A stretch of DNA of 64,000 bases from Rhodoferax sp. AJA081-3. GTDB lineage: Bacteria > Pseudomonadota > Gammaproteobacteria > Burkholderiales > Burkholderiaceae_C. Made by a program: the position numbers and the translations under genes. The stretch is taken from positions 1,860,001 to 1,924,000 of the forward strand of contig NZ_CP059068.1 in assembly GCF_017798165.1 (NCBI RefSeq), written 5' to 3'. The notes beneath the pieces were generated by a model. It saw nothing but the letters and a program-made list of their open reading frames with translations, was not told the origin of the DNA and did not search any database. Shown here one piece after another: positions 468 to 55,416 of the stretch; position 1 is the first letter of the stretch, and each line of letters begins with the position of its first letter.

Positions 468-2821
468 ACACCCTGAACACATCGGTCAAGCCCGAACATC
501 TGCGGGGCTTGCCAGCAGTGGCCCCATCCCAGGCCGCCGGCGTCAGCCGCCCGCACGAAAGTGCGGTGGCCCAGGTGGCCGGTGGCGCCACCTACATCGA
601 CGACATCCCCGAGGTGCGCGGCACGCTGTTTGCCGCGCCCATACTCTCCACCGTGGCACACGGCCGTCTGTTGGGTGTGGATGCCACGGCAGCACTGGCC
701 ATGCCCGGCGTGCGCGATGTAGTGCTGGCGCGCGACATCCCCGGCGACCCCATGCTGGCCGCTTTTGCCGGTGATGAGCCGGTGTTTGCGATGGATACTG
801 TGCAACACATCGGCCAGGTGATGGGCCTGGTGGTGGCCGACACGGTGATGCAGGCACGCCGTGCCGCACGCAAGGTCAAGCTCAATATCGAAGCCCTGCC
901 CGCCGTCCTGACGATCCAGGACGCGCTGGCCGCGCAAAGTTTTGTGCTGCCACCGGTGTTTGTGAAAAGGGGTGACGCGGCAGCAGCCATGGCCCGCGCA
1001 CAACACACACTGACGGGTACGCTGGAAGTGGGCGGCCAGGAACACTTTTACCTGGAGGGTCAGGTGGCCTACGTGCTGCCGCTGGAGCAAAACCAGTGGT
1101 GGGTCTACTCCAGCACCCAGCACCCGGGCGAGGTGCAACACTGGGTGTCGCACGCGCTGGGCATAGACAACCACGCGGTCACGGTGGAGTGCCGGCGCAT
1201 GGGTGGCGGTTTTGGCGGAAAGGAGACCCAGGCCGGGCATCTGGCCGTGTGGGCTGCCATTGCCGCACACAAGATACAACGCCCCATCAAGCTGCGCCTG
1301 GACCGCGACGACGACTTCATGGTCACCGGCAAACGCCACCCCTTTGCCTACGAATACAGCGCCGGCTTTGACGACACCGGCCGCCTGACCGCGCTCAAAC
1401 TCATGATGGCCGTGAACTGCGGTTTCAGCGCCGACCTGTCCGGCCCGGTGGCCGACCGCGCCATCTTCCACACGGACAACGCCTACTACCTGCAGGATGT
1501 GGACATTGCGTCCTACCGCTGCAAGCTCAACACCCAAAGCCACACCGCGTTTCGTGGCTTTGGCGGGCCACAGGGCGTGATCCTGATCGAGACCGTCATG
1601 GGCGACATCGCCCGCCACCTCGGCATGGACCCGCTGGACGTGCGCATGCGCAACCTGTACAGCGACGAGGCTGTTCCCCACACGAACCAGAAGCGCGACA
1701 CCACGCACTACGGCATGCAGGTGGAAGACAACATCCTGGCCCCTCTACTATCAAAACTAGAGCAGACTGCGCAGTACCGACGGGGGCGGGAGGCCACTTT
1801 GGCTTGGAACGCTGCCAACCCCATCATCAAGAAGGGCCTGGCCATCACCCCGGTTAAGTTCGGCATCAGCTTCACAGCCACGCTGTTCAACCAGGCCGGG
1901 GCGCTGGTCCATGTCTACACCGACGGCAGCGTGCAGGTCAACCACGGCGGGGCCGAGATGGGCCAGGGCCTGAACACCAAGGTGGCGCAGATCGTGGCCG
2001 ATGAACTGGGTGTTCCCTACCACCGCATTTTGTGCACGGCCAGCGACACCAGCAAAATACCCAATGCCTCAGCCACGGCCGCTTCCGCCGGCACCGACCT
2101 GAATGGCCGTGCCGCCCAGTTTGCCGCCCGCCATGTGCGCGACAACCTGGCCGCCTTTGTCAGCGGGCTGGATGCCTGCGGCGCCGGTGCGGTGCGTTTT
2201 GAGCATGGCCAGGTTATCTCCCCCACCACCACCCGCAGTTTTGACGACGTGGTGAAGATGGCCTATGCCAACCGCATCCAGCTGTGGAGCGACGGCTTCT
2301 ACCGCACACCCAAGATCCACTATGACAAGGCTACGCTGAGCGGACGGCCGTTCTACTACTTTGCCTACGGCGCAGCCTGCACCGAGGTTGCCATCGACAC
2401 CCTGACCGGCGAGAGCCGCGTGCTGAAGGTAGACATCCTGCACGACGTGGGCCGCAGCATCAACCCGGCCATCGACATCGGTCAGATCGAGGGCGGTTTT
2501 GTGCAAGGCATGGGCTGGCTGACCACCGAGCAACTGGTGTGGAACGACAAGGGTCTGCTGACCACCCACGCCCCCAGCACCTACAAGATCCCCACTGCGG
2601 GGGATGTGCCCAGCCACTTCAAGGTAGACCTGTGGCCCGAGCCCAACCGCGAGGACAACGTCTTTGGCAGCAAGGCCGTGGGTGAGCCGCCGTTCATGCT
2701 GGCCATCAGTGTGTACGAGGCGCTGCGCGATGCGATTGCGTCGGTGACAGGGACAGACAAAACGGTGCGGTTGACGGCACCGGCTACCGCGGAGAATGTG
2801 TTGAGGGCATTGGCGGCGTGA
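464..2821 (+). CDS. xdhB: Xanthine dehydrogenase molybdopterin-binding subunit
   Basis: This 785-residue protein has the full length expected of XdhB, the catalytic subunit that hydroxylates hypoxanthine and xanthine to urate. An N-terminal hammerhead domain (about 25-135) is followed by two molybdopterin-binding domains. Visible family motifs are GGGFGGKE near residue 246, FRGFGGPQG near 363, AEMGQGLNTK near 490 and GSKAVGEPP near 736, whose Glu is the catalytic base in characterised enzymes. The start overlaps the xdhA stop. The maturation factor xdhC is not adjacent but lies 17.6 kb downstream on the other strand. A degenerate copy of the dispersed RTAGC-N16 element lies in frame at 1748-1799, around residues 429-445. 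Confidence 0.96.
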   Translation: MNTLNTSVKPEHLRGLPAVAPSQAAGVSRPHESAVAQVAGGATYIDDIPEVRGTLFAAPILSTVAHGRLLGVDATAALAMPGVRDVVLARDIPGDPMLAAFAGDEPVFAMDTVQHIGQVMGLVVADTVMQARRAARKVKLNIEALPAVLTIQDALAAQSFVLPPVFVKRGDAAAAMARAQHTLTGTLEVGGQEHFYLEGQVAYVLPLEQNQWWVYSSTQHPGEVQHWVSHALGIDNHAVTVECRRMGGGFGGKETQAGHLAVWAAIAAHKIQRPIKLRLDRDDDFMVTGKRHPFAYEYSAGFDDTGRLTALKLMMAVNCGFSADLSGPVADRAIFHTDNAYYLQDVDIASYRCKLNTQSHTAFRGFGGPQGVILIETVMGDIARHLGMDPLDVRMRNLYSDEAVPHTNQKRDTTHYGMQVEDNILAPLLSKLEQTAQYRRGREATLAWNAANPIIKKGLAITPVKFGISFTATLFNQAGALVHVYTDGSVQVNHGGAEMGQGLNTKVAQIVADELGVPYHRILCTASDTSKIPNASATAASAGTDLNGRAAQFAARHVRDNLAAFVSGLDACGAGAVRFEHGQVISPTTTRSFDDVVKMAYANRIQLWSDGFYRTPKIHYDKATLSGRPFYYFAYGAACTEVAIDTLTGESRVLKVDILHDVGRSINPAIDIGQIEGGFVQGMGWLTTEQLVWNDKGLLTTHAPSTYKIPTAGDVPSHFKVDLWPEPNREDNVFGSKAVGEPPFMLAISVYEALRDAIASVTGTDKTVRLTAPATAENVLRALAA
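1748..1799 (+). repeat. Dispersed element, degenerate intragenic copy in xdhB
   Basis: The copy reads AGAGC (1759-1763), then exactly 16 nt, then ACGGGGGC (1780-1787), followed by AGGCCA. This is the fixed geometry of the seven clearer copies, but the CTA after GGGGGC is replaced by GGG. It is fully in frame and encodes an Arg-rich segment (YRRGREA). The region also looks conserved in the protein family, so chance resemblance is possible. Confidence 0.4.
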
Positions 2822-2842
2822 CAGCCATTGGCTAGTCTAGGC

Positions 2843-3178
2843 TCACGCCACAATGGCTTCGAGACCTTTTTTATCAATCAATTGAAGCAGCTTGGCTGCG
2901 GCGCCACTGGGATGTTTTCCAGAGCTGGGGGACTCCCACTTCTGCACCGCCGATACGCTGACATTTAATATCGATGCCAACACCGCTTGGCTCACCTTGG
3001 CTTTTCCCACGCGAATGGCAGTCACACGCTCCGGCGTGTATTCCGGAGGCGCCTCGCAAATCAGCTGCATCTTGGCCATGTCTTGCTTGGAGATAAGACC
3101 GTGTGGCGCAAGCGCTTGGGCCATCTCCATCATTTCTGCAAGAACACGGCTCTTGGCATGGCGGCTATCACGTGACAT
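2843..3178 (-). CDS. Antitoxin of a type II toxin-antitoxin pair, XRE-type HTH (HigA/NadS-like)
   Basis: This 111-residue protein has a C-terminal helix-turn-helix of the Cro/CI type (about residues 58-105: VSQAVLASILNVSVSAVQKWE). The N-terminal half would bind the toxin. Its start overlaps the toxin gene by 11 bp (3168-3178), and it lies downstream of the toxin, the reversed order typical of HigBA-like pairs. In the family such proteins neutralise the toxin and repress their own promoter. The pair sits between xdhB and an unrelated VOC gene and has no visible link to purine metabolism. The module type is well supported; assignment to a named family is not. Confidence 0.85.
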   Translation of the reverse strand: MSRDSRHAKSRVLAEMMEMAQALAPHGLISKQDMAKMQLICEAPPEYTPERVTAIRVGKAKVSQAVLASILNVSVSAVQKWESPSSGKHPSGAAAKLLQLIDKKGLEAIVA

Positions 3179-3554
3179 TGCAAATCTCCTTCAAAACATC
3201 TGCGGCGACCAGTTCATCCAGTTTTGTGGCGTCGGCCGCCTGGAGGCCCGCACCAATGATCTTGGCGGCATCCACTTCCTGATCTGAGAAATCGGATCCC
3301 GGTTTGCTTTTCTCTCGACCCACCAAAAAGAAGATCGCGTCCTTGTGCTTCTTCGCGACCAATGTGCGCAACGATCCGCTCTTGCCTCGACCAGGCAAGG
3401 CGACACGCTTTTTGCACAAACCACCGCCCAAGTCTGCCTCAAACAAGCCCTGCTCAATTTCACGCGCCGCCTGGCACAACGTGGAATCACACAGCACTTT
3501 GTTGGCCCAGCGGCTGAAGGTCTTGGTCTTGAAGACCCTTTTCTTGATTGACAT
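3168..3554 (-). CDS. RelE/HigB-like toxin
   Basis: The 128-residue product resembles the RelE/ParE-superfamily toxins annotated as COG4737. It has the basic N-terminus KKRVFKTKTFSRWA and a central strand segment with KKRVALPGRGKSGSLRTLVA. The middle pattern GLGGGLCKKRV-like followed by RTL and AIFFLVGREK is typical of this branch, whose members cleave mRNA at the ribosome. The toxin gene is first in the pair and overlaps the antitoxin gene. No good Shine-Dalgarno is seen before the ATG. A degenerate piece resembling the dispersed element lies just upstream (3562-3602). Confidence 0.82.
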   Translation of the reverse strand: MSIKKRVFKTKTFSRWANKVLCDSTLCQAAREIEQGLFEADLGGGLCKKRVALPGRGKSGSLRTLVAKKHKDAIFFLVGREKSKPGSDFSDQEVDAAKIIGAGLQAADATKLDELVAADVLKEICNVT

Positions 3555-3620
3555 TCTATCCAGCTATAGCACTAGGTGCAATACGACGTGACTTACAGGC
3601 GCTGCAAACCGGTAAACCCC

Positions 3621-13318: not shown

Positions 13319-13347
13319 AGGCTGAAGCAGGAATCCGTACTACGATT

Positions 13348-13409
13348 GCTATGTACTTTGTAGCACTTAAGTTATATGGCACGGGGGCTACAGCCACGAT
13401 TTCCATAAA
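13348..13409 (+). repeat. Dispersed RTAGC-N16 element, intergenic copy after modC
   Basis: GCTAT (13348-13352), 7 nt, GTAGC (13360-13364), 16 nt, ACGGGGGCTA (13381-13390), then CAGCCACGATTTCCATAAA. The first two blocks form a small stem. The geometry is identical to the other copies. Confidence 0.85.
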
Positions 13410-17851: not shown

Positions 17852-19087
17852 CTACTGTACCAGCGCAGCGCCGCTTTCAAACCATTGTTTGATCAAATTG
17901 CGCTCGGCATCGGTGATACCGGTCGCGTTGTTCATGGGCATGGCCTTGGTAATGACCACCTGTTGGTAGATAGCCTGCGCATTGCGCTGAATGTGCTCCA
18001 GGGAATCCAGCCGCACATTCTTCATCTGCGCCTGCTCACCATGGCACAGGGTGCAGCGCTGGTCCATCACCGCCTGCAGGGTCTTGTAGCCAATTTGGCC
18101 TGTAGCCCCCGTAGATACTGGTGGTGTAGCTACAGAATGTGTAGCAACCGCGGCTACCGGCGCGGGCCTGAGCCACACCACCAGAACCACCAGGGCCAAC
18201 ACACCCACCAGCGCGTAGGGCCAGGGGTGGCTGTTGCGCCCCAGTTTGAAGCCATGGCGCAGCACAAAAAACTGGCGGATGGCGGCGCCGGCAAACATCA
18301 TGGCCACCAACACCAGCCAGTTCTGCGGGTGGGTGTAGGTAAAGCTGTAGTGGCCGCTGAGCATGGCAAACAGCACCGGCAGCGTGAAGTAGGTGTTGTG
18401 CACGCTGCGTTGTTTGCCGCGTTTGCCGTGGATAGGGTCCACCGGCTCACCGGCCTTGATGCTGGCGACCATCTTGCGTTGGCCGGGGATGATCCAGTGC
18501 GCCACGTTGGCACTCATGGCCGTGGCCATCATGGCCCCCACCAGCAAAAAGGCCGCACGCCCGGCAAACCAGTGGCAGGCCAGCCAGGCGGCAATCACCA
18601 CCAGCACACCCACCAGCGCGCCAACGATGGCATCCCCATGTTTGCGCTGGGCAAAAATGCGGCAAATGCCGTCATACGCCAGCCAGAACACCACCAGAAA
18701 GCCCAGTGCCACGGCAATGGCCGCGCCGCTCGACCAGTCCATCACCGATTTGTCGATCAGGTAAGTGCCCGCACTCCACAGGTAAGACACCGTGAACAGC
18801 GCAAAACCGCTGAGCCAGGTGCTATAGCTCTCCCAGTAAAACCAGTGCAGATGTTTGGGCAGTTGAGGCGGTGCCCCGGCAAACTTGACCGGGTGGTAGA
18901 AACCACCACCGTGCACGGCCCACAACTCGCCGCTGACGCCCTGGCGCTTGAGGTCTTCGTCTTCGGGCGGCGTGAGGCTGCTGTCCAGAAACACAAAATA
19001 GAACGAGGAGCCGATCCAGGCAATGGCGGTGATGACGTGGACCCAGCGCAGCAGCAGGTTGGCCCAATCGAGCAGGTAACTTTCCAT
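17852..19087 (-). CDS. puuD: Urate hydroxylase PuuD (membrane urate oxidase with cytochrome c domain)
   Basis: This 411-residue protein has about eight membrane helices in residues 1-310 followed by a C-terminal cytochrome c domain with haem motif CTLCH (near residue 345) and axial Met in KAMPMNN. This is the PuuD architecture: it converts urate to 5-hydroxyisourate and passes electrons to the respiratory chain. The linker between the two parts (about residues 315-332) is encoded by a copy of the dispersed element. A near-perfect copy of the gntR/uraH palindrome lies 30-45 bp upstream. Substrate comes from XdhAB and product goes to UraH, both in this window. Confidence 0.94.
   Translation of the reverse strand: MESYLLDWANLLLRWVHVITAIAWIGSSFYFVFLDSSLTPPEDEDLKRQGVSGELWAVHGGGFYHPVKFAGAPPQLPKHLHWFYWESYSTWLSGFALFTVSYLWSAGTYLIDKSVMDWSSGAAIAVALGFLVVFWLAYDGICRIFAQRKHGDAIVGALVGVLVVIAAWLACHWFAGRAAFLLVGAMMATAMSANVAHWIIPGQRKMVASIKAGEPVDPIHGKRGKQRSVHNTYFTLPVLFAMLSGHYSFTYTHPQNWLVLVAMMFAGAAIRQFFVLRHGFKLGRNSHPWPYALVGVLALVVLVVWLRPAPVAAVATHSVATPPVSTGATGQIGYKTLQAVMDQRCTLCHGEQAQMKNVRLDSLEHIQRNAQAIYQQVVITKAMPMNNATGITDAERNLIKQWFESGAALVQ
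18092..18145 (-). repeat. Dispersed RTAGC-N16 element inside puuD
   Basis: Read on the minus strand: GCTAC (18145-18141), 7 nt, GTAGC (18133-18129), 16 nt, ACGGGGGCTA (18112-18103), then CAGGCCAAATT. It lies in frame in the linker between the membrane and cytochrome c domains, in the sense orientation. Confidence 0.85.
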
Positions 19088-24685: not shown

Positions 24686-24702
24686 TGATCCTAAATACTC
24701 CT

Positions 24703-24760
24703 GAATTCATAGCGATAGAAGTAATGAATTCGGGGGCTAGAGGCAAATTTCTCACAAACA
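24703..24760 (+). repeat. Dispersed RTAGC-N16 element, copy before the LolA-like gene
   Basis: ATAGC (24709-24713), 16 nt, TCGGGGGCTA (24730-24739), then GAGGCAAATTTCTCACAAA. Within it GAATTCAT (24703-24710) and ATGAATTC (24724-24731) form an extra inverted repeat. It fills most of the gap between the permease and the LolA-like gene and may separate two expression units. Confidence 0.8.
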
Positions 24761-30634: not shown

Positions 30635-32446
30635 ATGGCGATCACCCTGTCCCAACTCAACCAGGCCACGCTGGCAGATGCCACCCACCTGCTGGCCGGC
30701 CTGTACGAACATTCGCCGTGGATTCCCGAAGTGGCATTGCAGCAGCGCCCTTTTACCAGCCTGGCCCAACTGAAGCACGCGATGGTCGGCGTGCTGAACG
30801 CTGCCGGTGTCGAGCCCCAGTTAGCGCTGATACGCGCCCACCCCGAATTAGCCGGCAAGGCCATGGTGGACAAGAGCCTGACGGCAGAGTCCAGCAACGA
30901 ACAGAGCAAGGCGGGCCTCACGCACTGCACGCCGCAAGAGTTTGAAACCATCCAGCAGCTCAACCGCGACTACAACGCGCGTTTTGGCTTCCCCTTCATC
31001 CTGGCAGTGCGCGGGCCGCGCGGCACGGGCCTGTCCAAGGCCGAGATCATCGCCACCTTTGAGCGCCGCCTGCACGGCCACCCGGACTTTGAACGCCAGG
31101 AGTGTGTGCGCAACATCCACCGCATCGCCGAAATCCGACTGAACGACCTGTTTGGCTACACGCCGGAGTTGGGCAATACGGTATGGGACTGGCAAGAGAC
31201 CCTGGCACAACACACCGACCCCAGTTATGCCGAACTGGGCCAACTCACCGTCACCTACCTGACCGACGCCCACCGCGCCTGCGCACAGCGCATTAGCATG
31301 GACATGCGCCACGCGGGCTGCGATACGGTACACATCGACGCCGTGGGCAATGTGGTGGGTTGTTATAAAAACGATAGCGCATCAAGTCCATCCGACGGGG
31401 GCTACAGGCCAGTTTCTCATAAGACATTGCTCACCGGAAGCCATTACGACACGGTGCGCAACGGCGGCAAGTACGACGGTCGCCTGGGCATCTACGTGCC
31501 GCTGGCCTGCGTGCAGCAACTGGCTGCTGCCGGCAAACGCCTGCCATTTGATATCGAGATCGTCGCCTTTGCCGAAGAAGAAGGTCAGCGCTACAAGGCC
31601 ACCTTTTTGGGTTCCGGCGCGTTGACCGGGCATTTCAACCCGGCCTGGTTGGACCAGGTGGATGCGGACGGCATCAGCATGCGCGCCGCCATGCAACACG
31701 CAGGCCTGTGTGTCGACGACATCCCCAGCATAAAACGCAATGCCGACGACTACCAGGGTTTTGTGGAAGTCCACATCGAACAAGGCCCGGTGTTGAACGA
31801 ACTCGACATTCCGCTGGGCATCGTCACCTCCATCAACGCCGGTGTGCGTTACCAGTGTGAAGTGGTCGGCATGGCCAGCCACGCCGGCACCACACCCATG
31901 GACCGCAGGCGTGATGCGGCAGCGGCCGTGGCCGAGCTGATGCTGTTTGTAGAGCGCCGCGCCGCGGCCGACGGCGATTCGGTCGGTACCGTCGGCATGC
32001 TGCAGGTACCCAATGGTTCCATCAACGTGGTGCCGGGGCGCTGCCTGTTTTCGCTGGACCTGCGCGCGCCCAACAATGCGCAGCGCGACAAGCTGGCAGA
32101 CGACGTTCTGACCGAACTGGCCGCCATCTGCACCCGCCGCGGTGTGCACCACAGCGTCACTGAAAACATGCGCGCCAGCGCTGCACCGAGCGCCCCCGAA
32201 TGGCAGGCCCGTTGGGAAAAGGCGGTGGCAGCCCTTGGCGTTCCCTTGCACCACATGCCCAGCGGGGCAGGACACGACGCGATGAAGCTGCATGAAATCC
32301 TGCCCCAGGCCATGTTGTTTGTGCGTGGGTTGAACTCTGGCATCAGCCACAACCCGCTGGAGTCCACCACCAACGACGACATGCAACTGGCCATCGACGC
32401 CTTTGCACATTTGCTGGCCGACATGGCCCAATCGCCTGCGGACTGA
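30635..32446 (+). CDS. Fused OHCU decarboxylase (UraD) and allantoate amidohydrolase (AllC)
   Basis: The ATG at 30635 gives 603 residues. Residues 1-170 are UraD: IRAHPELAGK holds the catalytic His and AESSNEQSKAGL the Glu. Residues about 175-603 are an M20-type allantoate amidohydrolase with GSHYDTVRNGGKYDGRLG, AFAEEEGQRY and GAGHDAM. The fusion joins two steps that are not consecutive: UraD makes allantoin, PuuE acts next, and AllC follows. A dispersed element copy (31362-31422) encodes residues about 243-262, just before the metal-binding GSHYD motif. I recall similar fusions annotated in related bacteria. Confidence 0.92.
   Translation: MAITLSQLNQATLADATHLLAGLYEHSPWIPEVALQQRPFTSLAQLKHAMVGVLNAAGVEPQLALIRAHPELAGKAMVDKSLTAESSNEQSKAGLTHCTPQEFETIQQLNRDYNARFGFPFILAVRGPRGTGLSKAEIIATFERRLHGHPDFERQECVRNIHRIAEIRLNDLFGYTPELGNTVWDWQETLAQHTDPSYAELGQLTVTYLTDAHRACAQRISMDMRHAGCDTVHIDAVGNVVGCYKNDSASSPSDGGYRPVSHKTLLTGSHYDTVRNGGKYDGRLGIYVPLACVQQLAAAGKRLPFDIEIVAFAEEEGQRYKATFLGSGALTGHFNPAWLDQVDADGISMRAAMQHAGLCVDDIPSIKRNADDYQGFVEVHIEQGPVLNELDIPLGIVTSINAGVRYQCEVVGMASHAGTTPMDRRRDAAAAVAELMLFVERRAAADGDSVGTVGMLQVPNGSINVVPGRCLFSLDLRAPNNAQRDKLADDVLTELAAICTRRGVHHSVTENMRASAAPSAPEWQARWEKAVAALGVPLHHMPSGAGHDAMKLHEILPQAMLFVRGLNSGISHNPLESTTNDDMQLAIDAFAHLLADMAQSPAD
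31362..31422 (+). repeat. Dispersed RTAGC-N16 element inside uraD-allC
   Basis: ATAGC (31374-31378), 16 nt, ACGGGGGCTA (31395-31404), then CAGGCCAGTTTCTCATAA. It is in frame and in the sense direction. The encoded segment (KNDSASSPSDGGYRPVSH) looks like an extra low-complexity loop between the GNVVG strand and the GSHYD motif. Confidence 0.88.
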
Positions 32447-33762: not shown

Positions 33763-34593
33763 ATGCCCTGGCACGCTCAGCTACAACTGGACTACACCCT
33801 GGAAGCCGGCCGCACCGTGGCCCGCCACAGCCACAGCGGCCCGCTGCGCATTCTGCAAAGCCTCTACCCCGAGGGCGACAGCATTTGCCACAACGTGCTG
33901 GTGCACCCGCCCGGCGGTCTGGTCGGTGGCGACACGCTGGAGATCAACGTGCACGCCCAGGCCGGCAGCCACGCGCTGATCACCACGCCAGGCGCCAGCC
34001 GCTTTTACCGGTCCGACGGCCTGACCGCTTTGCAGAAAACCCATTTGCGGGTGGAAGCCGATGCGCGCCTGGAATGGCTGCCGCTGGAGGCGATCTGTTA
34101 CAGCGCCTGCCTGGCCGAAAACCGTCTGACCATGGAACTGGCGCCGGGCGCCGAACTGATGGGCTGGGATATCACCGCGCTGGGCCTGCCGCTGGCCAAC
34201 CTGCCTTTTGTGGCTGGCCATTTCCGCCAACATATCGAGGTGCCTGGTGTCTGGCTGGAGCGCGGCGCAATAGAAGCCAGCGACAGCCGCCTGCTGGACA
34301 GCCCGGCGGGCATGGCCGGTCACAAATGCGTGGCATCGTTTTTCTTTATCACCGGTCAGCCCATCCCCCGCGAGCGCCGTGAACGCGCGCTGGACAGCGC
34401 CCGCGCCGTGATCGCACAACACGCGCTGGCAGGTACGGCGGGCGCCACCAGCCCCCACCCGCAGGTGCTGGTGGTGCGTGTGCTGGCACCGGTGGTGGAG
34501 CCTGCCATGGCGCTGCTGCGCACCCTGCGCAACACCTGGCGCCAGGAGCTTTGGGCCAAATCGGCCTCTAGCCCCCGTATTTGGTCCATGTAG
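33763..34593 (+). CDS. ureD: Urease accessory protein UreD
   Basis: The 276-residue protein has the UreD phrases HPPGGLVGGDTLEI (near 47), LITTPGASRFYRSDG (near 75) and a C-terminal PRIW motif. UreD binds apo-urease and with UreF and UreG helps load nickel. No ureABC, ureE, ureF or ureG is found in the window; the gene is alone, after the purine operon and next to the convergent urea importer. The last nine codons and the stop lie within a reversed dispersed element. Confidence 0.94.
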   Translation: MPWHAQLQLDYTLEAGRTVARHSHSGPLRILQSLYPEGDSICHNVLVHPPGGLVGGDTLEINVHAQAGSHALITTPGASRFYRSDGLTALQKTHLRVEADARLEWLPLEAICYSACLAENRLTMELAPGAELMGWDITALGLPLANLPFVAGHFRQHIEVPGVWLERGAIEASDSRLLDSPAGMAGHKCVASFFFITGQPIPRERRERALDSARAVIAQHALAGTAGATSPHPQVLVVRVLAPVVEPAMALLRTLRNTWRQELWAKSASSPRIWSM

Positions 34594-34611
34594 TGCTATC
34601 CTTTTGATACT
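34563..34611 (-). repeat. Dispersed RTAGC-N16 element overlapping the 3' end of ureD
   Basis: On the minus strand: ATAGC (34599-34595), 16 nt, ACGGGGGCTA (34578-34569), then GAGGCC. It is antisense to ureD; its complement encodes the ASSPRIWSM tail and stop. Confidence 0.85.
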
Positions 34612-34677
34612 GAACTGCAAAAGCCTTCTCGGACCGCTGCACGCCACGTTATTTTTGGAGCACACTGTGCCAATCTG

Positions 34678-41984: not shown

Positions 41985-42122
41985 GGGTGTGACCTTCCGA
42001 AGTTAAAGAGAAACCAGCTTCGCTGCGCTCGGGCTGTGGCAATAACAGTCCTTGCTCAACGATGGGTTCACTGTAGGGAAGGTCGGGGGAACGCGAAATA
42101 CGCCGAGTGGCGTATGAACATA

Positions 42123-42200
42123 GCCCCCACGCTCCACCGCTTCGCGGGTCGCTGCCCCCCGAGGGGGCTAAATCCGCTTGGGGCGGCCCGGCGCGGATTT
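42123..42200 (-). repeat. 78-bp structured repeat, copy 2
   Basis: The reverse complement matches 21863-21940 at 75 of 78 positions. It begins 20 bp after the phosphodiesterase stop codon, in the direction of that gene. It holds three inverted repeats. It may end or protect the phosphodiesterase transcript upstream of the urtA promoter. Confidence 0.9.
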
Positions 42201-47325: not shown

Positions 47326-47946
47326 ATGCCGAAACCTATGAACACCGCAAGCCAACGCACGCTGGCCCATTACAACGAACATGCCCAGGACTTTTTTGCC
47401 GGCACGCGCGACCACGACGTGCGACAGAACATGGACGCCCTGCTGCAACACATCGAAGGCACAGCGCCGTTCACGATTCTGGACTTTGGCTGCGGCCCGG
47501 GCCGGGATCTGAAAGCCTTCAGCGCGCTGGGCCATACAGCGGTGGGCCTGGAGGGTGCCGAGCGTTTTGCGGAGATGGCACGTGCCTACAGCGGCTGCAC
47601 GGTGTGGCACCAGGACTTTTTGGCGCTGGACCTGCCAGCCGAACACTTTGATGGCGTGTTTGCCAACGCGTCACTGTTCCATGTGCCCAGTGCGGTGCTA
47701 CCGCGGGTGCTGCGGGAGGTACATGCCACGCTGAAACCCCGCGGCATTTTGTTCAGCTCCAACCCACGGGGCAACAACGAGGAAGGGTTTAACGGTGAAC
47801 GGTATGGCGCCTACCACGACATCGCCGCCTGGCGCGCCTATGTGACCGCGGCAGGCTTTGTCGAACTGATGCACTACTACCGGCCACCGGGTTTGCCAAT
47901 CGAGCAGCAGCCCTGGCTGGCCAGTGTGTGGCGCAAGACCTCTTAG
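47326..47946 (+). CDS. Class I SAM-dependent methyltransferase
   Basis: From the ATG at 47326 the protein has 206 residues (47338 is an alternative start). The SAM motif I is ILDFGCGPGRDL near residue 49, followed by GLEGAERF and DFLALDLP motifs. FDGVFANASLFHVP fits the family of small-molecule methyltransferases. The end of the gene overlaps convergent fapA by 4 bp. Substrate unknown. Confidence 0.88.
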   Translation: MPKPMNTASQRTLAHYNEHAQDFFAGTRDHDVRQNMDALLQHIEGTAPFTILDFGCGPGRDLKAFSALGHTAVGLEGAERFAEMARAYSGCTVWHQDFLALDLPAEHFDGVFANASLFHVPSAVLPRVLREVHATLKPRGILFSSNPRGNNEEGFNGERYGAYHDIAAWRAYVTAAGFVELMHYYRPPGLPIEQQPWLASVWRKTS

Positions 47947-49553
47947 CGGATCGGCTTCACACGCCCCGCGGGGTCGGTCCACACCACACCGGTCTCAGGG
48001 TCCAAGGAAAAAACACCCTGGCTGTATTCGGTCCGCAAGTGTGCCGTGGTACTGACCACCGTGAGGTCCACCGGCCCAGCCACACCGCCCGCGCCGACCT
48101 GTACTTTGGCCCTCTGCATGACCGCCAATTGTTTTTCCAACTCCGTCCGCTCGGCCAGTGACCGGGACCACACCTGTACCGCCTGTTGCCAAGACGCTTT
48201 GACCCGTTCGAGCATACCCTTGGGGTCGCCAGTGGCGGTCAGTTGTTTGGTCAACTTGCTCAGGTTTTCTTCATGGGTCTTTTCGGTTTCCAGGCGCTGT
48301 AGCAAGGCCTGCATCTGCGCTTCCAGCTCAGCATTGGCGCCCACGGTCACACGGGTCAACCCGCCTTTGTCGGAACCCAAGAGCGGGCACCGGACCAGCA
48401 TCATGGCCTTGGCACTGCCGCCCACCAAACGCCCGCGCTTGGGTGCTTTTTCACCAACGATGATCTGGTTGCCGGACTCCAGCGCGCAGTCCAGCGCCAT
48501 GTCTTCCAGCATGATGGTGGTGCCCGCGTGGATGCTGCAGTTCTCGGCAAAACGGGCAGAGACAGCACCCTCCGCCTGGACCTGGGCCTGCGCAATGATG
48601 CCGCCGGCCACACGGATATCGCCACCGGCGTCCAGCAGACCGCCATCCACCGTGCCCCCCACCACAATGTCGCCCTTGGCCTGCACTTTCATGCCGTGGG
48701 AGACTTCGCCGTCGATCTGTACCGTGCCGTCAAAGTAGATGTTTCCCACGGCCAGGTTGACCCCGGCCAAGCGCAGTACCGGCTCCACCATCACCCCATG
48801 GGTCACCAAAACAGGCTGACCACCCAACGTGGCCTTCAACAGATTGGAGTCTTCCAGGGCGGCCTGCGCACCGACGAGTGACGGTGCAAAGGGCGCATCC
48901 CGTCCGGCACGCGCCGGCAGCTCCCGCCCCAGCACGGTGTGGCCCGCAACACCGGGTGTGGGCGGAATGCGGCGCATCAGGGGCTCACCGACCTGGACCA
49001 CGGTGATGCCGCCGTGCTCGCGGTAATCGATCAATCCATTGGCATCGACTTTGGGTGCACGGTCAGCGGTTTCGGGTATCAGCGCCTGGAAGACGGTGTC
49101 GTGGCCGTGTTCGGGTGGGATTGCAAACGCCACTTCCACATGGTCTGCCTGGCCTAGTGCACAGGCTTGCTCCACTGCGGCGGTGTCAATGCCAAATGCC
49201 ACACTGGCCTCGACCAGGGCCCGCAAGACATCGGCAGCCGTGGCCGGTTTGCCACCCTGTGGCGCTACCAGGCTGATCTGCGCGGTCATCTCATCGGCGG
49301 CCATGTGTACCTGCACTTGTGCATCGCGCCGCTCGGCGACCTGGACCACAAACGATACCGGATGGGTGTTGCAGTCGCTCGCGGCCTGGGCAATGGCCGT
49401 AACGTCTTTGGCGCACTGCTCGAACCCAGCCTGTGCCAGCGCTGCGGTAAGCATGCTGGGGTCAACTGCAGGACGTCCTGCTACCGGCAGGTTGTGCAAG
49501 AACACCTGCCCGTTGACCTCTGTAAAGGAGATGCCCGGCAAGTCCACGTCCAT
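47943..49553 (-). CDS. FapA family protein (DUF342, polymer-forming)
   Basis: The 536-residue protein has an N-terminal region (about 1-180), a central FapA beta-helix domain (about 185-400; GNIYFDGTVQIDGEV, MKVQAKGDIVVGGTVDGG) and a C-terminal coiled coil (LLQRLETEKTHEENLSKLTKQ). FapA relatives link to flagellar assembly or cell shape. No flagellar gene is nearby. Its function here is not clear. Confidence 0.87.
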   Translation of the reverse strand: MDVDLPGISFTEVNGQVFLHNLPVAGRPAVDPSMLTAALAQAGFEQCAKDVTAIAQAASDCNTHPVSFVVQVAERRDAQVQVHMAADEMTAQISLVAPQGGKPATAADVLRALVEASVAFGIDTAAVEQACALGQADHVEVAFAIPPEHGHDTVFQALIPETADRAPKVDANGLIDYREHGGITVVQVGEPLMRRIPPTPGVAGHTVLGRELPARAGRDAPFAPSLVGAQAALEDSNLLKATLGGQPVLVTHGVMVEPVLRLAGVNLAVGNIYFDGTVQIDGEVSHGMKVQAKGDIVVGGTVDGGLLDAGGDIRVAGGIIAQAQVQAEGAVSARFAENCSIHAGTTIMLEDMALDCALESGNQIIVGEKAPKRGRLVGGSAKAMMLVRCPLLGSDKGGLTRVTVGANAELEAQMQALLQRLETEKTHEENLSKLTKQLTATGDPKGMLERVKASWQQAVQVWSRSLAERTELEKQLAVMQRAKVQVGAGGVAGPVDLTVVSTTAHLRTEYSQGVFSLDPETGVVWTDPAGRVKPIR

Positions 49554-49660
49554 CAGCCCGTCCTTTCTGTGGCCGAACCATGCAAAAAGTGTAGGAGCTC
49601 TATACGCAGACGCAAGGGACTATTTTGTAAGCACAGGGCACAGGCCGCTGGTCCACGCAA

Positions 49661-49725
49661 TTAGCTATAGTATTAATAGCATACTCTATTTATTGCACGG
49701 GGGCTAGAGGCCAGTTTCTTATAAA
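49661..49725 (+). repeat. Dispersed RTAGC-N16 element next to the IS
   Basis: GCTAT (49664-49668), 7 nt, ATAGC (49676-49680), 16 nt, ACGGGGGCTA (49697-49706), then GAGGCCAGTTTCTTATAAA. It ends 6 bp before the IS and originally lay just after the GNAT gene's stop. Confidence 0.9.
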
Positions 49726-49851: not shown

Positions 49852-51114
49852 ATGGTGATTGACATGAACCTACTGAAGCTCAAGACGATGGCGCAGTTGC
49901 GCCAGTTTTTGGACAGTACACAGGCTTTGGAGTTCGCAAGCCTGGCCGACACCACAGCGTGTTATGCCCATGTCGCGCAGACCATCCAACGCTTCGCCCA
50001 CGCCAGCCTGTGTCGCTCGGATCGTTCCGTGGTGCTGCGCTACCTGGAACGCACCAGCGGCTACTCCAGCGCACAGGTCAAACGCCTGGTATCGCGTGCT
50101 CTGGACGGGGAAGTTCTACAGCGTCGCTACGTGGCACCCAACACGGCCTACGCACGACGCTTTACGGACCAGGACATTGCCCTGCTGGCCCAGACCGACC
50201 GCGCCTTTGACACCCTCTCCGGGGCGGCCACAACCCATGTGCTGTGGCGCCAGTGGCATGTGTATGGGGACGCCCGCTTCGAGCGCCTGAGTGCTATCAG
50301 CGTTTCGCACCTGTACAACCTCAGAAACAGCGTTCGCTACGAGCGCGAGCGTGTGTACCGCAGCAAGACCACCGCGTCGCCGCGCTGCACCCAGATCGGC
50401 GAGCGACGAGCGCCAACACCGCAAGGCCATGCTGGTCACATCCGCATCGACAGCGTGCACCAGGGCGACCTTGACGGTCTCAAAGGGGTCTACCACATCA
50501 ATGCAGTTGATATCGTCACCCAATGGCAGGTGGTGGTGTGCACGGAGTACATCAGCCACAGCTTTATGAGCATCGTCGTTGAGCTGCTGATCGAGCAATT
50601 CCCCTTCCAGCTACGCGGCATTCACGCCGACAACGGCGTGGAGTACATCAATGAACGCATGCTGGAGCTGATGGAGAAAGCCCGTATCGAGCTAACCAAA
50701 TCACGCCCCCGGCGCAGTACCGACAACGCGCTGGTCGAAGGCAAGAATGGCGCGGTGGTGCGCAAGATGTTTGGCTTCAAACACATCGCGCGCAGCAAAG
50801 CGGGGCTGATCAATGACTTCAACCGAGAGCACTTCAACCCGCTGAACAATTTGCACAGGCCCAGCCTGTTTGCAAGCCTGAAGGATGACCCCAAGAAGCC
50901 TGGTCGCACCCTGAAGCGCTACTACGCCCGGGATGCCCAAACTCCGCTGGAGAAGTTGGCCAGTTTGCCAGCACGCCTGCGTCACCTCAAGGCGGGGGTA
51001 ACGATCAAAGATTTGTTGGCGCAGGCGAACAAGCAAAGTGACTTGCAAGCCGCTCAGGCTCGTAACGCCGCCTGGGAGGAACTGGCTCCAAAGCTATATG
51101 GCAAATGCGCTTGA
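49852..51114 (+). CDS. Transposase with integrase-type DDE domain
   Basis: This 420-residue protein has an N-terminal helical DNA-binding region (residues 1-120) and an rve-type catalytic core. The catalytic acids are the Asp in HIRIDSVHQGD (near 201), Asp in IHADNGVEYIN (near 261) and Glu in NALVEGKNG, 35 residues later (DX35E). The frame is open throughout with no stop or frameshift, so the enzyme may be active. It has no second ORF. Confidence 0.93.
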   Translation: MVIDMNLLKLKTMAQLRQFLDSTQALEFASLADTTACYAHVAQTIQRFAHASLCRSDRSVVLRYLERTSGYSSAQVKRLVSRALDGEVLQRRYVAPNTAYARRFTDQDIALLAQTDRAFDTLSGAATTHVLWRQWHVYGDARFERLSAISVSHLYNLRNSVRYERERVYRSKTTASPRCTQIGERRAPTPQGHAGHIRIDSVHQGDLDGLKGVYHINAVDIVTQWQVVVCTEYISHSFMSIVVELLIEQFPFQLRGIHADNGVEYINERMLELMEKARIELTKSRPRRSTDNALVEGKNGAVVRKMFGFKHIARSKAGLINDFNREHFNPLNNLHRPSLFASLKDDPKKPGRTLKRYYARDAQTPLEKLASLPARLRHLKAGVTIKDLLAQANKQSDLQAAQARNAAWEELAPKLYGKCA

Positions 51115-52431: not shown

Positions 52432-52899
52432 TTAGAGAACGGGCTCACACACCACCTCGGTCTTCACCGAGTTGGCAATAAAACAGGAAGCATGGGCGCG
52501 GTGGTGCAGGTCCTGCAGCGCCTGTGCCGTGGGGCACTGGCCCGGCGCAAACTGCACGGCCGGGCGCAGCACCACACGTGTCATGGCCTGCTGGCCTTCG
52601 GCGTTACGGGCCAGCGTTCCGATCGCCTCGTCACGGTAGCTGTCCACTACCCAGCCGGCGCGCGCGGTGATGTCCAGAAACCACAACATGTGGCAGCTGG
52701 ACAGGGATGCGACAAAGGCTTCCTCCGGGTCCACCGCCGCCGCGTCGGAATAGGGCAAGGGCACCACGTGTGGTGACGAGGAACCGGGCACCACCGCGCC
52801 CCCATCAAAACGCCATGTATGGCGGCGGCTGTAACGGTGGTCGGTGAAGGCGGCGTTGTCGTCCCGCTGCCAGAGGATGGTGCTGCTGTGTTGGGCCAT
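52432..52899 (-). CDS. OsmC family protein
   Basis: The 155-residue protein matches OsmC-like peroxidases: the two redox Cys are in LSSCHMLWF (near residue 69) and ASCFIANSVKTEV (near 137). OsmC family members reduce organic hydroperoxides. It is first of a three-gene run (OsmC, PaiB-like, GNAT) and divergent from MocR. Confidence 0.92.
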   Translation of the reverse strand: MAQHSSTILWQRDDNAAFTDHRYSRRHTWRFDGGAVVPGSSSPHVVPLPYSDAAAVDPEEAFVASLSSCHMLWFLDITARAGWVVDSYRDEAIGTLARNAEGQQAMTRVVLRPAVQFAPGQCPTAQALQDLHHRAHASCFIANSVKTEVVCEPVL

Positions 52900-52920
52900 G
52901 GTGTGTAGGGAAGGTGAATG

Positions 52921-52937
52921 CTAAAGTGGCTCTTTAG
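52921..52937. promoter_or_regulatory. Inverted repeat between OsmC-like and MocR genes
   Basis: CTAAAG (52921-52926) and CTTTAG (52932-52937) form a perfect 6-bp inverted repeat around TGGCT, in the 77-bp gap between the divergent genes. It suits an operator for the MocR protein. Confidence 0.5.
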
Positions 52938-52976
52938 TTTAAGAATAAATTTCATCTATCAAGGGGCCAATTTTCC

Positions 52977-54437
52977 ATGACCCAAAGAACCAATCCCACC
53001 CGCCCTAAGCACCGTGGGGAAACCGTGCGCCAGCAGGTTTACCTGGAGCTGCGCCGTGCCATCGAGCAAGGCACGTTCAAGCCCGGCACACGCTTGCCCG
53101 CATCGCGCGAGCAGGCGGTCACGCTGGGTGTGTCACGCAACAGCGTGTTGTGGGCGCTGGAGCGGCTGCAGTCTGAGGGCTATGTGGTGGCGCGTGTGGG
53201 TGATGGCAGTTATGTGGCCGACAACCTGGGGGCCTTGGTTTCCTCCAGTCTGGCCACCAAGGGCCTGCGCCCTGCGGTTACCGCAGGCCTGTCACAGCGC
53301 GGGCAACTGGTGGCCGACACGGTATCGCGCTGGAACCCGCCACTGGTGGCGGCCCACCCCTTTCGTATTGGCGCGCCGGAGATCGGCACGTTCCCGTTTG
53401 CGGTGTGGGACCGGCTGGCGCGCCAAGCCTCCAAAGAGCAGCGCATGGCCCAGGCCCAGTACCTGGACCCTGCCGGTGCACCCGCGCTGCGCGATGCGAT
53501 TGCACAGTGGTTGTGGGTGTCGCGCGGCATACGCTGCGAGGCGGCGCAGGTAGTGGTGTGCTCGGGTTCGCAGCAGGGCATAGACCTGGTGGGTCGGCTG
53601 CTGCTGGACGTGGGTGACGAGGCCTGGGTCGAAGACCCGGGTTACCCCGGCATACGCGCCAGCCTGGTCGGCCACGGTGTAACTGTGCGGCCGGTGCCAG
53701 TGGACAGCGAAGGCCTGGTGGTGGACCAGGCCGCAGCACTGTGGCCCGCAGCCCGGCTGGCCGTGGTGACACCCACCTCGCAGTTCCCCACCGGCGTGCG
53801 CATGAGCCTGCAGCGCCGCTTGGCCCTGTTGGACTGGGCCAATGCCCAACGCGCCTGGATTGTGGAAGACGACTACGACGGCGAGTTCCAGTACGGCACC
53901 CATCGCCTGCCCGCGCTGTGCAGCCTGCCCCATGCACAGCGGGTGCTGTATGTGGGCACCTTTTCCAAAACGCTGCACCCCGGGTTGCGCCTGGGTTTTA
54001 TCGTGCTGCCCCATGCACTGGCAGGAGCCTTTGCGATGGCCCGCGCACTGACCGACCGCCACGCGCCCGGCGATACGCAGGACGTGCTGGCCCGCTTCAT
54101 CACCGAAGGCCATTTGCTGCGCCACCTGCGCCGCATGCGTGAGCTGTACCCGCAGCGCCAACAGGTCCTGATTGAGGCTATGGCCAAGGCCAGCCAGGGC
54201 CAACTGGTGTTGCAGTCCAGTGAACAGGGCATGCACCTGCTGCACGAACTGCCCGCGGGCCAGGACGACCAGACGCTGTCCGCGCGCGCCCAACAGGCAG
54301 GCCTGTTGTTAGCACCGCTGTCGCGCTACACCATTGCGTCCAGGCGGCGGGGGTGGTTGTTTGGGTATGCGGGGTATGACACGGCTGCGCTGCGCAAGGC
54401 GGCAACCGTTTTGGGGAAACTGCTGCGCAATGTATAG
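52977..54437 (+). CDS. MocR/PdxR-type regulator (GntR HTH plus aminotransferase domain)
   Basis: The 486-residue protein has an N-terminal GntR HTH (RRAIEQGTFKPGTRLPASRE, then LGVSRNSVLWALERL) and a large PLP-binding aminotransferase-like domain (from about residue 115). The PLP Lys is in YVGTFSKTLHPGLRLGF near residue 330; EDDYDGEFQY near 299 is typical. MocR regulators sense PLP or amino acid derivatives. It is divergent from the OsmC/PaiB/GNAT genes, its likely targets. Confidence 0.94.
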   Translation: MTQRTNPTRPKHRGETVRQQVYLELRRAIEQGTFKPGTRLPASREQAVTLGVSRNSVLWALERLQSEGYVVARVGDGSYVADNLGALVSSSLATKGLRPAVTAGLSQRGQLVADTVSRWNPPLVAAHPFRIGAPEIGTFPFAVWDRLARQASKEQRMAQAQYLDPAGAPALRDAIAQWLWVSRGIRCEAAQVVVCSGSQQGIDLVGRLLLDVGDEAWVEDPGYPGIRASLVGHGVTVRPVPVDSEGLVVDQAAALWPAARLAVVTPTSQFPTGVRMSLQRRLALLDWANAQRAWIVEDDYDGEFQYGTHRLPALCSLPHAQRVLYVGTFSKTLHPGLRLGFIVLPHALAGAFAMARALTDRHAPGDTQDVLARFITEGHLLRHLRRMRELYPQRQQVLIEAMAKASQGQLVLQSSEQGMHLLHELPAGQDDQTLSARAQQAGLLLAPLSRYTIASRRRGWLFGYAGYDTAALRKAATVLGKLLRNV

Positions 54438-54533
54438 CGCACAGCCCTCGCAGTTAGTCCATTTGGACTATTGAGGTTTCGCCAGCAAAAGGCAGAATGC
54501 ACTGCGACATTTTTTTACCTACTGGAGAACACA

Positions 54534-55241
54534 TTGAGATTCAAGACTGCTTTTTCGGCTTCGGCCATTGTTGTAGCCAGTTTGTTTGGCATGACCCAAT
54601 CTGCCAATGCTGCAGATAGTTACATTTTCGGTTACAGCAATCTGAACGCTGGCAATCGTTTGAATGTCAATGGATCCACTTTCTTGTCGACGATTGATTC
54701 GGGCTGGTACAACAACAGTGGTGCCCACGATCCATCCAACACCAACTACATTGTTGGTGCCTGCTGTGGTGCTTCAGAGTTCCGCAATTGGTTTGTGTTT
54801 GACATCAGCGGACTCACATCGCCTGTGTCGTCATTGTCTTTTGACTTGTATTCTTACAGCGTGACCCTGACTTCTGGCAACTACTACGTCAACGACGTGA
54901 GCACATCTATCTCCAGCCTGGTGGGTGGCACAGGGGGTTTGTCGGCTTTCAACGATTTGGGAACCGGATCTAACTACGGGTTCAACTTCTACCAGAGCGG
55001 CACAGACTCCAACCAGTTCCACACCATCAGCCTCAACAGTGCTGCTGTTTCCAGCTTGAATACGTCTATCGCTTCAAATGCTGGCACGTGGGCACTCGGC
55101 GGCGCATTTGCTGCTGGCAATGTGCCAGTGCCTCCCATCAGCCCAGTGCCAGAGACTGAAACCTATGCCATGCTGATTGCAGGTTTGGGTTTGATGGGCG
55201 CTATTGCCCGTCGCCGCAAACTGAAACGCGCCGCCGTTTAA
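54534..55241 (+). CDS. PEP-CTERM sorting domain protein, exported
   Basis: A TTG at 54534 with GGAG 7 nt upstream begins a 235-residue protein with a signal peptide (cut near SANA). The C-terminus is a PEP-CTERM sorting signal: VPETETYAMLIAGLGLMG followed by ARRRK, with PET instead of PEP. The body is rich in Ser, Thr, Asn and Gly, as in secreted surface proteins. The exosortase that would process it is not in the window. A strong terminator follows. Confidence 0.87.
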   Translation: MRFKTAFSASAIVVASLFGMTQSANAADSYIFGYSNLNAGNRLNVNGSTFLSTIDSGWYNNSGAHDPSNTNYIVGACCGASEFRNWFVFDISGLTSPVSSLSFDLYSYSVTLTSGNYYVNDVSTSISSLVGGTGGLSAFNDLGTGSNYGFNFYQSGTDSNQFHTISLNSAAVSSLNTSIASNAGTWALGGAFAAGNVPVPPISPVPETETYAMLIAGLGLMGAIARRRKLKRAAV

Positions 55242-55260
55242 TTTCTACGGTTTGATCGAA

Positions 55261-55288
55261 CAAAACGGGAGCCTAGGCTCCCGTTTTG
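55261..55288 (+). terminator. Strong hairpin terminator after the PEP-CTERM gene
   Basis: CAAAACGGGAGCCT and AGGCTCCCGTTTTG are perfect complements with no loop bases beyond the central ones, 28 bp in all, 19 bp after the stop. The A and T runs at the arms make it work on both strands. Confidence 0.85.
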
Positions 55289-55361
55289 CATGGTGACGAG
55301 CTATGCGTACATCGTTACCGATAGGTGCAAGCGGCGCAAGACGATCACCATTTTCAAAAAA

Positions 55362-55416
55362 CTGCTACGTAATCAATAGCACACCAGGCAATATAAACGG
55401 GGGCTAACGGCAGTTT
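55362..55416 (+). repeat. Dispersed RTAGC-N16 element overlapping the 3' end of the pilin gene
   Basis: GCTAC (55364-55368), 7 nt, ATAGC (55376-55380), 16 nt, ACGGGGGCTA (55397-55406), then ACGGCAGTTT. Antisense to the pilin gene: the CTA at 55404-55406 is its TAG stop. Confidence 0.85.

What the first reader, a model, noticed from the sequence alone, without database searches (positions are those of the whole stretch)
1748..55416. A short dispersed element with fixed geometry, RTAGC-N16-WCGGGGGCTA, in eight copies
Eight copies (1748, 13348, 18092, 24703, 31362, 34563, 49661, 55362) share a constant 16-nt gap between RTAGC and WCGGGGG although the 16 nt themselves vary. The xdhB copy is the most degenerate, with AGAGC in place of RTAGC and no CTA. 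Four also have GCTAY 7 nt before RTAGC, giving a small stem, and most continue with NAGGCCANNTT. Variable filler with invariant spacing argues for a folded RNA or protein-binding unit rather than drift from a mobile copy. Both orientations occur. I recall similar sequences between genes of Comamonadaceae but no described function.
Basis: seen in the sequence. Interest (0 to 1): 0.78.

Follow-up and report, generated by a model that had tools for sequence, protein, structure and literature searches.

The report
Genome-wide 65-base motif with species dialects
Bacteria of the family Comamonadaceae carry hundreds of evenly spaced copies of a 65-base signal that has been written letter by letter into gene ends and even into working genes, with a spelling typical of each species, which suggests a self-recognition signal rather than a jumping repeat.

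Summary
The repeat is real and far larger than reported. RTAGC-N16-WCGGGGGCTA occurs 338 times in the 5.17 Mb genome (reversed control 0), with a gap of strictly 16. A weight matrix finds 155 copies in 1.264 Mb, about 65 bp and 60 bits each. It is not a mobile insertion: 56 of 155 copies lie inside predicted genes, and around the xdhB site the protein has the same local length in own and 29 of 29 relatives aligned, whether they carry a near-perfect element or ordinary codons. The motif is written over existing codons by substitution. No pairing pattern supports an RNA fold. Copies are spaced more evenly than chance (0 pairs under 800 bp, 14-17 expected), use both strands, crowd gene 3' ends and avoid divergent gaps. 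Genomes use dialects (CGGGGG, CGAGGG and others), and orthologous coding sites follow them in 18 of 19 cases. None of 291 sampled genomes from other families of the order has it. Much of this matches DNA-uptake sequences of Neisseriaceae and Pasteurellaceae, but the motif is much longer, its spacing stricter, and no receptor or competence-gene link was found; uptake is inferred. Two motif fragments were listed in 2017 without function (PMC5217627).

The parts
1743..1808 (+). element copy inside xdhB (gene 464-2821), AGAGC in place of RTAGC so that the TAG stop is avoided
   Evidence: weight matrix 36.0 bits; xdhB by NCBIfam TIGR02965, 1130 bits; same local length in own and 29 of 29 relatives aligned
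13344..13409 (+). element copy, intergenic, after modC (gene end 13318)
   Evidence: exact pattern, gene calls, NCBIfam modC
18084..18149 (-). element copy inside the 411-codon gene 17852-19087 (-; no NCBIfam family), in frame, in a length-variable stretch
   Evidence: exact pattern; alignment of own and 29 relatives
24693..24758 (+). element copy, intergenic between 24640 and 24778; GCTAY half degenerate
31358..31423 (+). element copy inside gene 30635-32446 (allantoate-amidohydrolase-like); loop about 11 residues longer than the two PDB relatives shown
34550..34615 (-). element copy overlapping the 3' end of gene 33763-34593 (+; no NCBIfam family)
49660..49725 (+). element copy, intergenic between divergent genes 47943-49553 (-) and 49852-51114 (+; weak IS481/IS3 transposase match, under the curated cut-offs)
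55360..55425 (+). element copy in the convergent gap 55241/55404, overlapping the 3' end of gene 55404-55883 (-)

Best explanation
Shown here: this is a long (about 65 bp, 60 bits) DNA signal that accumulates in place by base substitution at hundreds of evenly spaced chromosomal sites, on both strands. It is tolerated mostly at gene 3' ends and in the reading frames that avoid its built-in TAG/CTA triplets, and its central letters differ between genomes as dialects. Inferred: it is recognised on double-stranded DNA by a fast-evolving receptor. The likeliest setting is the type IV pilus DNA-uptake machinery. Fragments that carry the right dialect are taken up preferentially and recombine into the homologous locus, so mutations towards the consensus are driven to fixation genome-wide, as proposed for the DUS of Neisseriaceae and the USS of Pasteurellaceae. 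If one element per fragment is enough, a second nearby gains nothing, which could explain the exclusion of close neighbours.
For: Strict geometry and 338 exact copies, control 0. No insertion: within 15 residues of the xdhB site, 29 of 29 relatives aligned show net gap 0, while matrix scores over the 30 loci range from +44 to -60 (30 best of 101 genomes with a match). In the 411-aa gene net gaps are -3 to +2 over 30 loci. GatB, FolP, DHFR, GcvP and HppA align to PDB relatives with no insertion of element size. Dialects: CGGGGG-dominated against CGAGGG-dominated genomes; the tag at two orthologous coding sites follows the genome dialect in 18 of 19 cases (Fisher p=0.0001, which overstates because the genomes are related and some count twice). 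Other genomes use GCCG, AAGC, AAGG, GGGC. Spacing CV 0.71 against about 1.0 under two null models, none of 2000 simulations each as even. Both strands equally used. In-gene copies obey frame: 24 of 31 same-strand and 23 of 25 opposite-strand copies in one frame; in the 4 same-strand copies of the frame in which TAG would be a stop, TAG reads GAG. Published DUS/USS properties in common: origin by point mutation, 35-65% in ORFs, no orientation bias (PMC1939737, passages); dialects and stop-codon limits on framing (PMC3630211, passages).
Against: Uptake is not shown and no receptor was found. ComEC (93 of 103) and GspH pilins (96 of 103) are present with or without elements. Of the 10 genomes with no ComEC match, 6 carry elements: G012 126, G096 52, G299 50, G026 47, G020 39, G030 37; G299 and G026 are rated 100% and 99% complete, though all are drafts. 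The motif is much longer and richer than known uptake signals. Intermediate sites are scarce: 12 of 161 hits lie between 12 and 30 bits, whereas DUS with one mismatch are about as common as exact DUS (PMC3630211). USS often sit close together (23% within 100 bp of another, PMC7811141), while no two copies here lie within 800 bp; PMC1939737 itself disputes that DUS are evenly spaced enough for a compaction role and says DUS are not biased to places downstream of genes, while this element is. Mean spacing is 7.8 kb, against about 1 kb for USS. AceE and the allantoate-amidohydrolase-like protein have loops 9-11 residues longer than PDB relatives at the element, so local indels are not excluded there. 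Several dialects contain an inverted repeat (GCCGG..CCGGC, AGCGCTT..AAGCGCT).
Confidence: 0.43

Rival explanations
1. An intracellular chromosome signal: binding site of a nucleoid, topoisomerase or recombination/segregation protein that needs one site every few kb. Sites are kept by direct selection, and dialects follow the evolution of that protein.
For: Even spacing with strict exclusion of close neighbours, unlike USS (PMC7811141); 60 bits over about six helical turns suggests a large wrapped complex; sites conserved at orthologous places; absence of the whole set in some genomes could go with loss of the protein; elements in 6 of 10 genomes without a ComEC match.
Against: No significant strand polarity (66 versus 89 leading/lagging, p=0.08). 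Genomes of the same genus rated 99-100% complete have none (G077, G061, G032, G018, G035, G086), so it is dispensable. Rapid dialect change is unusual for core chromosome proteins (general knowledge).
Confidence: 0.3
2. A REP/REPIN-like mobile element moved by a RAYT (Y1 transposase), with old diverged copies.
For: Hundreds of dispersed short copies, preference for gene ends, RTAG motif and inverted repeat in some dialects, a single-copy Y1_Tnp gene whose stop codon abuts an element.
Against: No insertion in the coding sites tested; filler poorly shared between copies; 56 of 155 copies inside predicted genes; Y1_Tnp does not track copy number.
Confidence: 0.1
3. A transcription terminator or other RNA element at gene ends, perhaps bidirectional.
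For: Convergent gaps hold 33 copies against 12.8 expected, p=1e-7; 35 of 38 gene-end overlaps are 3' ends; 27 of 59 convergent gaps of 61 bp or more are occupied. Hairpin dialects exist.
Against: The own dialect lacks the second inverted repeat and shows no covariation. Copies lie in either orientation inside core genes such as gatB, folP and dnaX, where a terminator would be harmful. Avoidance of promoters alone gives the same gap bias.
Confidence: 0.08

Closest known systems
DNA uptake sequence (DUS) of Neisseriaceae and its dialects
   Same: Genome-wide overrepresentation, both strands, copies in genes limited by a built-in stop codon, lineage dialects
   Different: 10-12 bp and thousands of copies against about 65 bp and about 630 (extrapolated); no ComP-type receptor identified here; uptake not tested; few intermediate sites; a bias to gene 3' ends that PMC1939737 says DUS lack
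Uptake signal sequence (USS) of Pasteurellaceae
   Same: Compound signal with a core and AT-rich flanks, many copies in genes, point-mutation origin
   Different: 31 bp and about 1 kb mean spacing with many close pairs, against about 65 bp, 7.8 kb and no pair under 800 bp; a different sequence
Spaced motifs GCTTAT(N)5AAGCG (Acidovorax ebreus, 114 copies) and ATAGCT(N)22CAAAAG (Polaromonas naphthalenivorans, 125 copies), PMC5217627
   Same: The first fits the AAGC-dialect core of this element (GCGCTTAT-N5-AAGCGC, my comparison by eye with sequences); same frequent place between convergent genes
   Different: Only fragments in single genomes; no full unit, dialects, in-gene overwriting or mechanism; whether the second is the same element I could not confirm
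REP/REPIN elements with RAYT transposases
   Same: Short, dispersed, hundreds of copies, RTAG motif
   Different: REPs are extragenic mobile palindromes; this is written into genes without insertion and does not track the Y1 gene
Rickettsia palindromic elements (RPE)
   Same: In-frame presence inside protein genes
   Different: RPEs are insertions (recalled); here local protein length does not change at the sites tested with orthologues
Beta-proteobacterial repeat element (BRE), PMC3110155
   Same: Dispersed repeat shared by Betaproteobacteria including Comamonadaceae
   Different: BRE is about 90 bp, 69% GC in Bordetella, sometimes in tandem, at most 29 copies

Membership tests
DNA uptake sequence / uptake signal sequence | Strong genome-wide overrepresentation on both strands | tested here: met
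   169 forward and 169 reverse, control 0
DNA uptake sequence / uptake signal sequence | Arises by substitution in existing sequence, not by insertion | tested here: met
   29 of 29 xdhB relatives net gap 0 near the site; 5 of 7 proteins aligned to PDB relatives without element-sized insertion, 2 of 7 with 9-11 extra residues
DNA uptake sequence / uptake signal sequence | No replication-strand polarity | tested here: met
   66 versus 89, p=0.08
DNA uptake sequence / uptake signal sequence | Spacing: reported as even, yet with many close pairs in USS | tested here: inconclusive
   more even than chance (CV 0.71, none of 2000 simulations), but no pair under 800 bp, unlike USS
DNA uptake sequence / uptake signal sequence | Lineage dialects | tested here: met
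DNA uptake sequence / uptake signal sequence | Graded overrepresentation of near matches | tested here: inconclusive
   12 of 161 hits between 12 and 30 bits; score spread wider than the matrix predicts (sd 14.2 versus 9.0)
DNA uptake sequence / uptake signal sequence | Cognate receptor or dependence on competence genes | tested here: inconclusive
   ComEC and GspH near-universal with or without elements; 6 of 10 genomes without a ComEC match carry elements
DNA uptake sequence / uptake signal sequence | Enhances DNA uptake in cells | not testable with these tools
   needs experiment
REP/REPIN-RAYT | Extragenic location | tested here: not met
   56 of 155 wholly inside predicted genes
REP/REPIN-RAYT | Copy number tracks a RAYT gene | tested here: not met
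   Y1_Tnp in 96 of 103; no match in element-rich drafts G051, G043, G031, G060; present in element-free G077, G061, G032, G018, G035, G086
REP/REPIN-RAYT | Conserved palindromic hairpin | tested here: not met
   Y/R independent and no pairing series; own dialect lacks the second inverted repeat
Rickettsia palindromic element type | In-frame insertion lengthening the host protein | tested here: not met
   two proteins with 9-11 extra residues
Rho-independent terminator | Stable hairpin plus U run at gene ends | tested here: not met
   no conserved hairpin in own dialect, copies inside core genes; no folding energy or RNA-seq was computed
BRE | About 90 bp, GC-rich, sometimes tandem | tested here: not met
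   about 65 bp with AT-rich blocks, no two copies within 800 bp; BRE description from PMC3110155; BRE sequences themselves were not compared

The most novel reading that the evidence does not exclude
Comamonadaceae have evolved, independently of Neisseriaceae and Pasteurellaceae, a third DNA self-recognition (uptake) system whose signal is an unusually long 65-bp code with lineage dialects, strong enough to rewrite codons of core genes such as xdhB, gatB, folP, mutL and comEC itself.
Probability: 0.4. Interest if true: 0.9.

Novelty: new variant of a known kind. Interest (0 to 1): 0.78.

Why it matters
If it is an uptake signal, it would be a third bacterial family with sequence-coded DNA self-recognition (the other two as named in PMC7811141), and the longest such code known to me. 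It would make receptor/signal co-evolution testable across many genera with visible dialects, and would explain repeats that have sat unexplained in Comamonadaceae genomes. Whatever the function, hundreds of sites, many overwriting codons, with dialects that differ genome-wide, show a drive or selection strong enough to shape protein sequences, and annotators should not treat these sites as mobile repeats or RNAs.

Tried and rejected
Rejected: folded RNA (no Rfam hit in the window at gathering thresholds). Mobile insertion or in-frame palindromic element, which I favoured for a while after seeing the frame bias: equal local length in orthologues ruled it out. RAYT driver. BRE identity, by description only. 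Replication-strand signal. Candidate correlates that led nowhere: ComEC and GspH/FimT pilins, both near-universal. Literature: 'DNA uptake sequence' with Comamonadaceae, 0 papers. Core strings searched as text gave 90 papers, 20 listed, none of the listed titles about this element. Other searches gave long, capped lists (30, 426, 9, 836, 92 and 153 papers, of which 20, 25, 9, 15, 12 and 12 were listed). The library holds only openly licensed papers, so absence is not proof.

Weak points: gene calls come from a home-made hexamer caller, not a standard annotation. The weight matrix was trained on copies it then finds; its control was one plain letter shuffle of one strand (0 hits). The significance of the column correlations was not tested; the strongest distant pairs were -43/-24, -17/15, 15/41 and -35/44, all weak. 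The copy number of about 630 is extrapolated from 1.264 of 5.17 Mb. PDB alignments cover 7 of 54 in-gene hosts and orthologue alignments 2 of 54; the latter used the 30 best-scoring loci (own included) of 101 and 93 genomes with a match. NCBIfam names cover 46 of 54 hosts, 37 with a family, plus xdhB. In the dialect test I used only rows whose tag was CGGGGG or CGAGGG (19 of the 60 rows, own genome in both genes) and typed the counts by hand.
Full report
OBSERVATION. The window holds seven exact copies of RTAGC-N16-WCGGGGG (0.02 expected), each continuing CTA, and a degenerate eighth in xdhB. The window is 1,860,001-1,924,000 of a one-contig 5.17 Mb genome, in which the full pattern occurs 338 times, 169 on each strand, against 0 for the reversed control. 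I took three 400-kb blocks plus the window, 1.264 Mb in all. There a gap of 16 occurs 100 times and other gaps from 6 to 30 occur 0-2 times. An iterated weight matrix finds 161 sites above 12 bits and 155 above 18, with none in one plain shuffle of one strand. The conserved unit runs from about -38 to +27 around the C of CGGGGG, with a weak tail to about +41. Its consensus is roughly WWTTGCTAY-N7-RTAGC-N16-WCGGGGGCTASAGGCC-N-ATTT-N-GCTTAAA (by eye), and its relative entropy is 60.7 bits over -38 to +45.

WHERE IT SITS. By a home-made gene caller, 56 of 155 copies lie wholly inside genes, 34 overlap gene ends and 65 are intergenic. Counting copies whose midpoint lies in a gap (94), convergent gaps hold 33 against 12.8 expected from their length and divergent gaps 10 against 26.6. 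Of 38 gene-end overlaps, 35 are 3' ends. Inside genes, 24 of 31 same-strand and 23 of 25 opposite-strand copies use a single frame. The other frames are mostly closed by TAG/CTA triplets of the motif, and in all 4 same-strand copies of the frame in which TAG of RTAGC would be a stop it reads GAG instead. Of the 54 host genes, 46 were scanned with NCBIfam and 37 found a family; among them are mutL, comEC, dnaX, an addA/recB-like helicase, aceF, metH, mnmE and miaA, and xdhB was confirmed separately. mutL and comEC each hold two copies, and the mutL pair is the closest in the sample (827 bp).

NOT AN INSERTION. XdhB was found in 101 of 103 genomes of the genus and the 411-aa protein in 93 of 103. 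The 30 best loci of each, own included, were aligned. Within 15 residues of the XdhB site the net gap is 0 in all 29 relatives. Matrix scores run from +44.4 (G092) to -60.0 (G061), so the same residues are encoded either by a near-perfect element or by ordinary codons. For the 411-aa protein, in a length-variable stretch, scores run from +65.9 to -56.0 with net gaps of -3 to +2. Against PDB relatives (7 of 54 hosts), GatB, FolP, DHFR, GcvP and HppA show no element-sized insertion. AceE and the allantoate-amidohydrolase-like protein have loops 9-11 residues longer. The element is therefore written over pre-existing sequence at the sites tested, with local indels not excluded in two.

NOT A FOLD. 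In mutual information over 155 copies the 20 strongest pairs lie within three columns of each other. A few distant pairs are weak (the strongest, -43/-24, includes a column outside the unit) and form no pairing series (significance not tested). The Y of GCTAY and the R of RTAGC vary independently (odds ratio 0.95). Some dialects of other genera do contain a second inverted repeat (AGCGCTT..AAGCGCT, GCCGG..CCGGC), but the own dialect does not.

DIALECTS AND RANGE. In the family, GCTAY-N(5-9)-RTAGC-N(10-36)-GCTASAGGCC hits 41 of 200 genomes and 34 of 141 genera (reversed control 0-1 per genome). In the capped list of places I see three that are not 49 bp long, and the four letters before GCTA differ by genome. 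Within the genus, 47 of 103 genomes have the general pattern and several rated 99-100% complete have none. CGGGGG dominates in some genomes (own 338 versus 13) and CGAGGG in others (G003 15 versus 285). At the two orthologous coding sites the tag follows the genome dialect in 18 of 19 cases; the exception is G012. The genomes are related, so the p-value of 0.0001 overstates. In XdhB this is the synonymous pair CGA/CGG. In the order, 4 of 300 genomes match, all in the own family; 0 of 291 from other families. Of 120 stretches found in named genomes, 80 are listed (scan stopped at its limit): Rhodoferax, Polaromonas, Acidovorax, Simplicispira, Ottowia and similar, and unnamed Burkholderiales or other bacteria. 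IMG/VR holds one stretch with the general pattern.

SPACING. Mean spacing is 7.8 kb, CV 0.71, 0 pairs lie under 800 bp (14.1 or 17.2 expected under two null models), and none of 2000 simulations of either model was as even. Orientation relative to GC skew is 66 versus 89, p=0.08.

MECHANISM. Several properties are those published for DNA uptake sequences: origin by point mutation rather than insertion, 65% or 35% of copies in ORFs, no orientation bias (PMC1939737, passages read); dialects and a stop codon that restricts framing (PMC3630211, passages read); with long fragments, nearly even uptake (PMC7811141, passages read). I therefore judge a DNA-uptake-type drive the likeliest single mechanism (0.43). 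The recognition protein and the uptake step are inferred. Against it: length and information content, scarce intermediates, 7.8 kb spacing with no close pairs (USS have many), a bias to gene 3' ends that DUS are said to lack, no correlation with ComEC or GspH pilins, and elements in 6 of 10 genomes without a ComEC match. PMC1939737 also reports both views on even spacing of uptake sequences: Karlin's, and its own that they are not even enough for compaction. The main rival is an intracellular chromosome-binding protein (0.3).

NOVELTY. PMC5217627 (section 13 and passages read) lists GCTTAT(N)5AAGCG in Acidovorax ebreus (114 copies, 107 intergenic) and ATAGCT(N)22CAAAAG in Polaromonas naphthalenivorans (125 copies, 18 in genes) as potential novel motifs without function, and says that Rhodoferax ferrireducens has the most motif pairs of all genomes examined. 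The first fits the core of one dialect. In the listings of my searches (open-licence library, capped lists) I saw no paper that joins them, describes the whole unit, its dialects or its in-gene overwriting, or proposes uptake.

Noticed in passing
window 42121-42169 (-): A GC-rich stretch (AGCCCCCTCGGGGGGCAGCGACCCGCGAAGCGGTGGAGCGTGGGGGCTA) of a different kind; from recall and description it may belong to another Betaproteobacterial repeat class such as BRE.
   Followed up: no
L041:748-3273 (-) and L013:3633-4982 (-): comEC and mutL of this genome each carry two copies of the element (1069 and 827 bp apart); the called mutL ORF is only 450 aa and its best NCBIfam match covers positions 3-344 of 634.
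   Followed up: partly
L099:1462-2163 (+): Single Y1_Tnp (RAYT-like) gene flanked by GGGGTCAGATTCCAAT inverted repeats, with one element abutting its stop codon.
   Followed up: partly
genomes G026 and G299: Rated 99% and 100% complete, with 47 and 50 elements but no ComEC match, unlike 93 of 103 genomes of the genus.
   Followed up: no
window 30635-32446 (+): One ORF whose N-terminal part matches OHCU decarboxylase and whose C-terminal part matches carbamoyl/allantoate amidohydrolases of the PDB, not far from xdhB.
   Followed up: no
positions -7 to -2 of the element: The stretch before WCGGGGG uses a small repertoire of letters (for example TATTTC, ATACCG, GCAAAT, TATTCC) that recurs in relatives, with strong neighbour correlation; unexplained.
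   Followed up: partly
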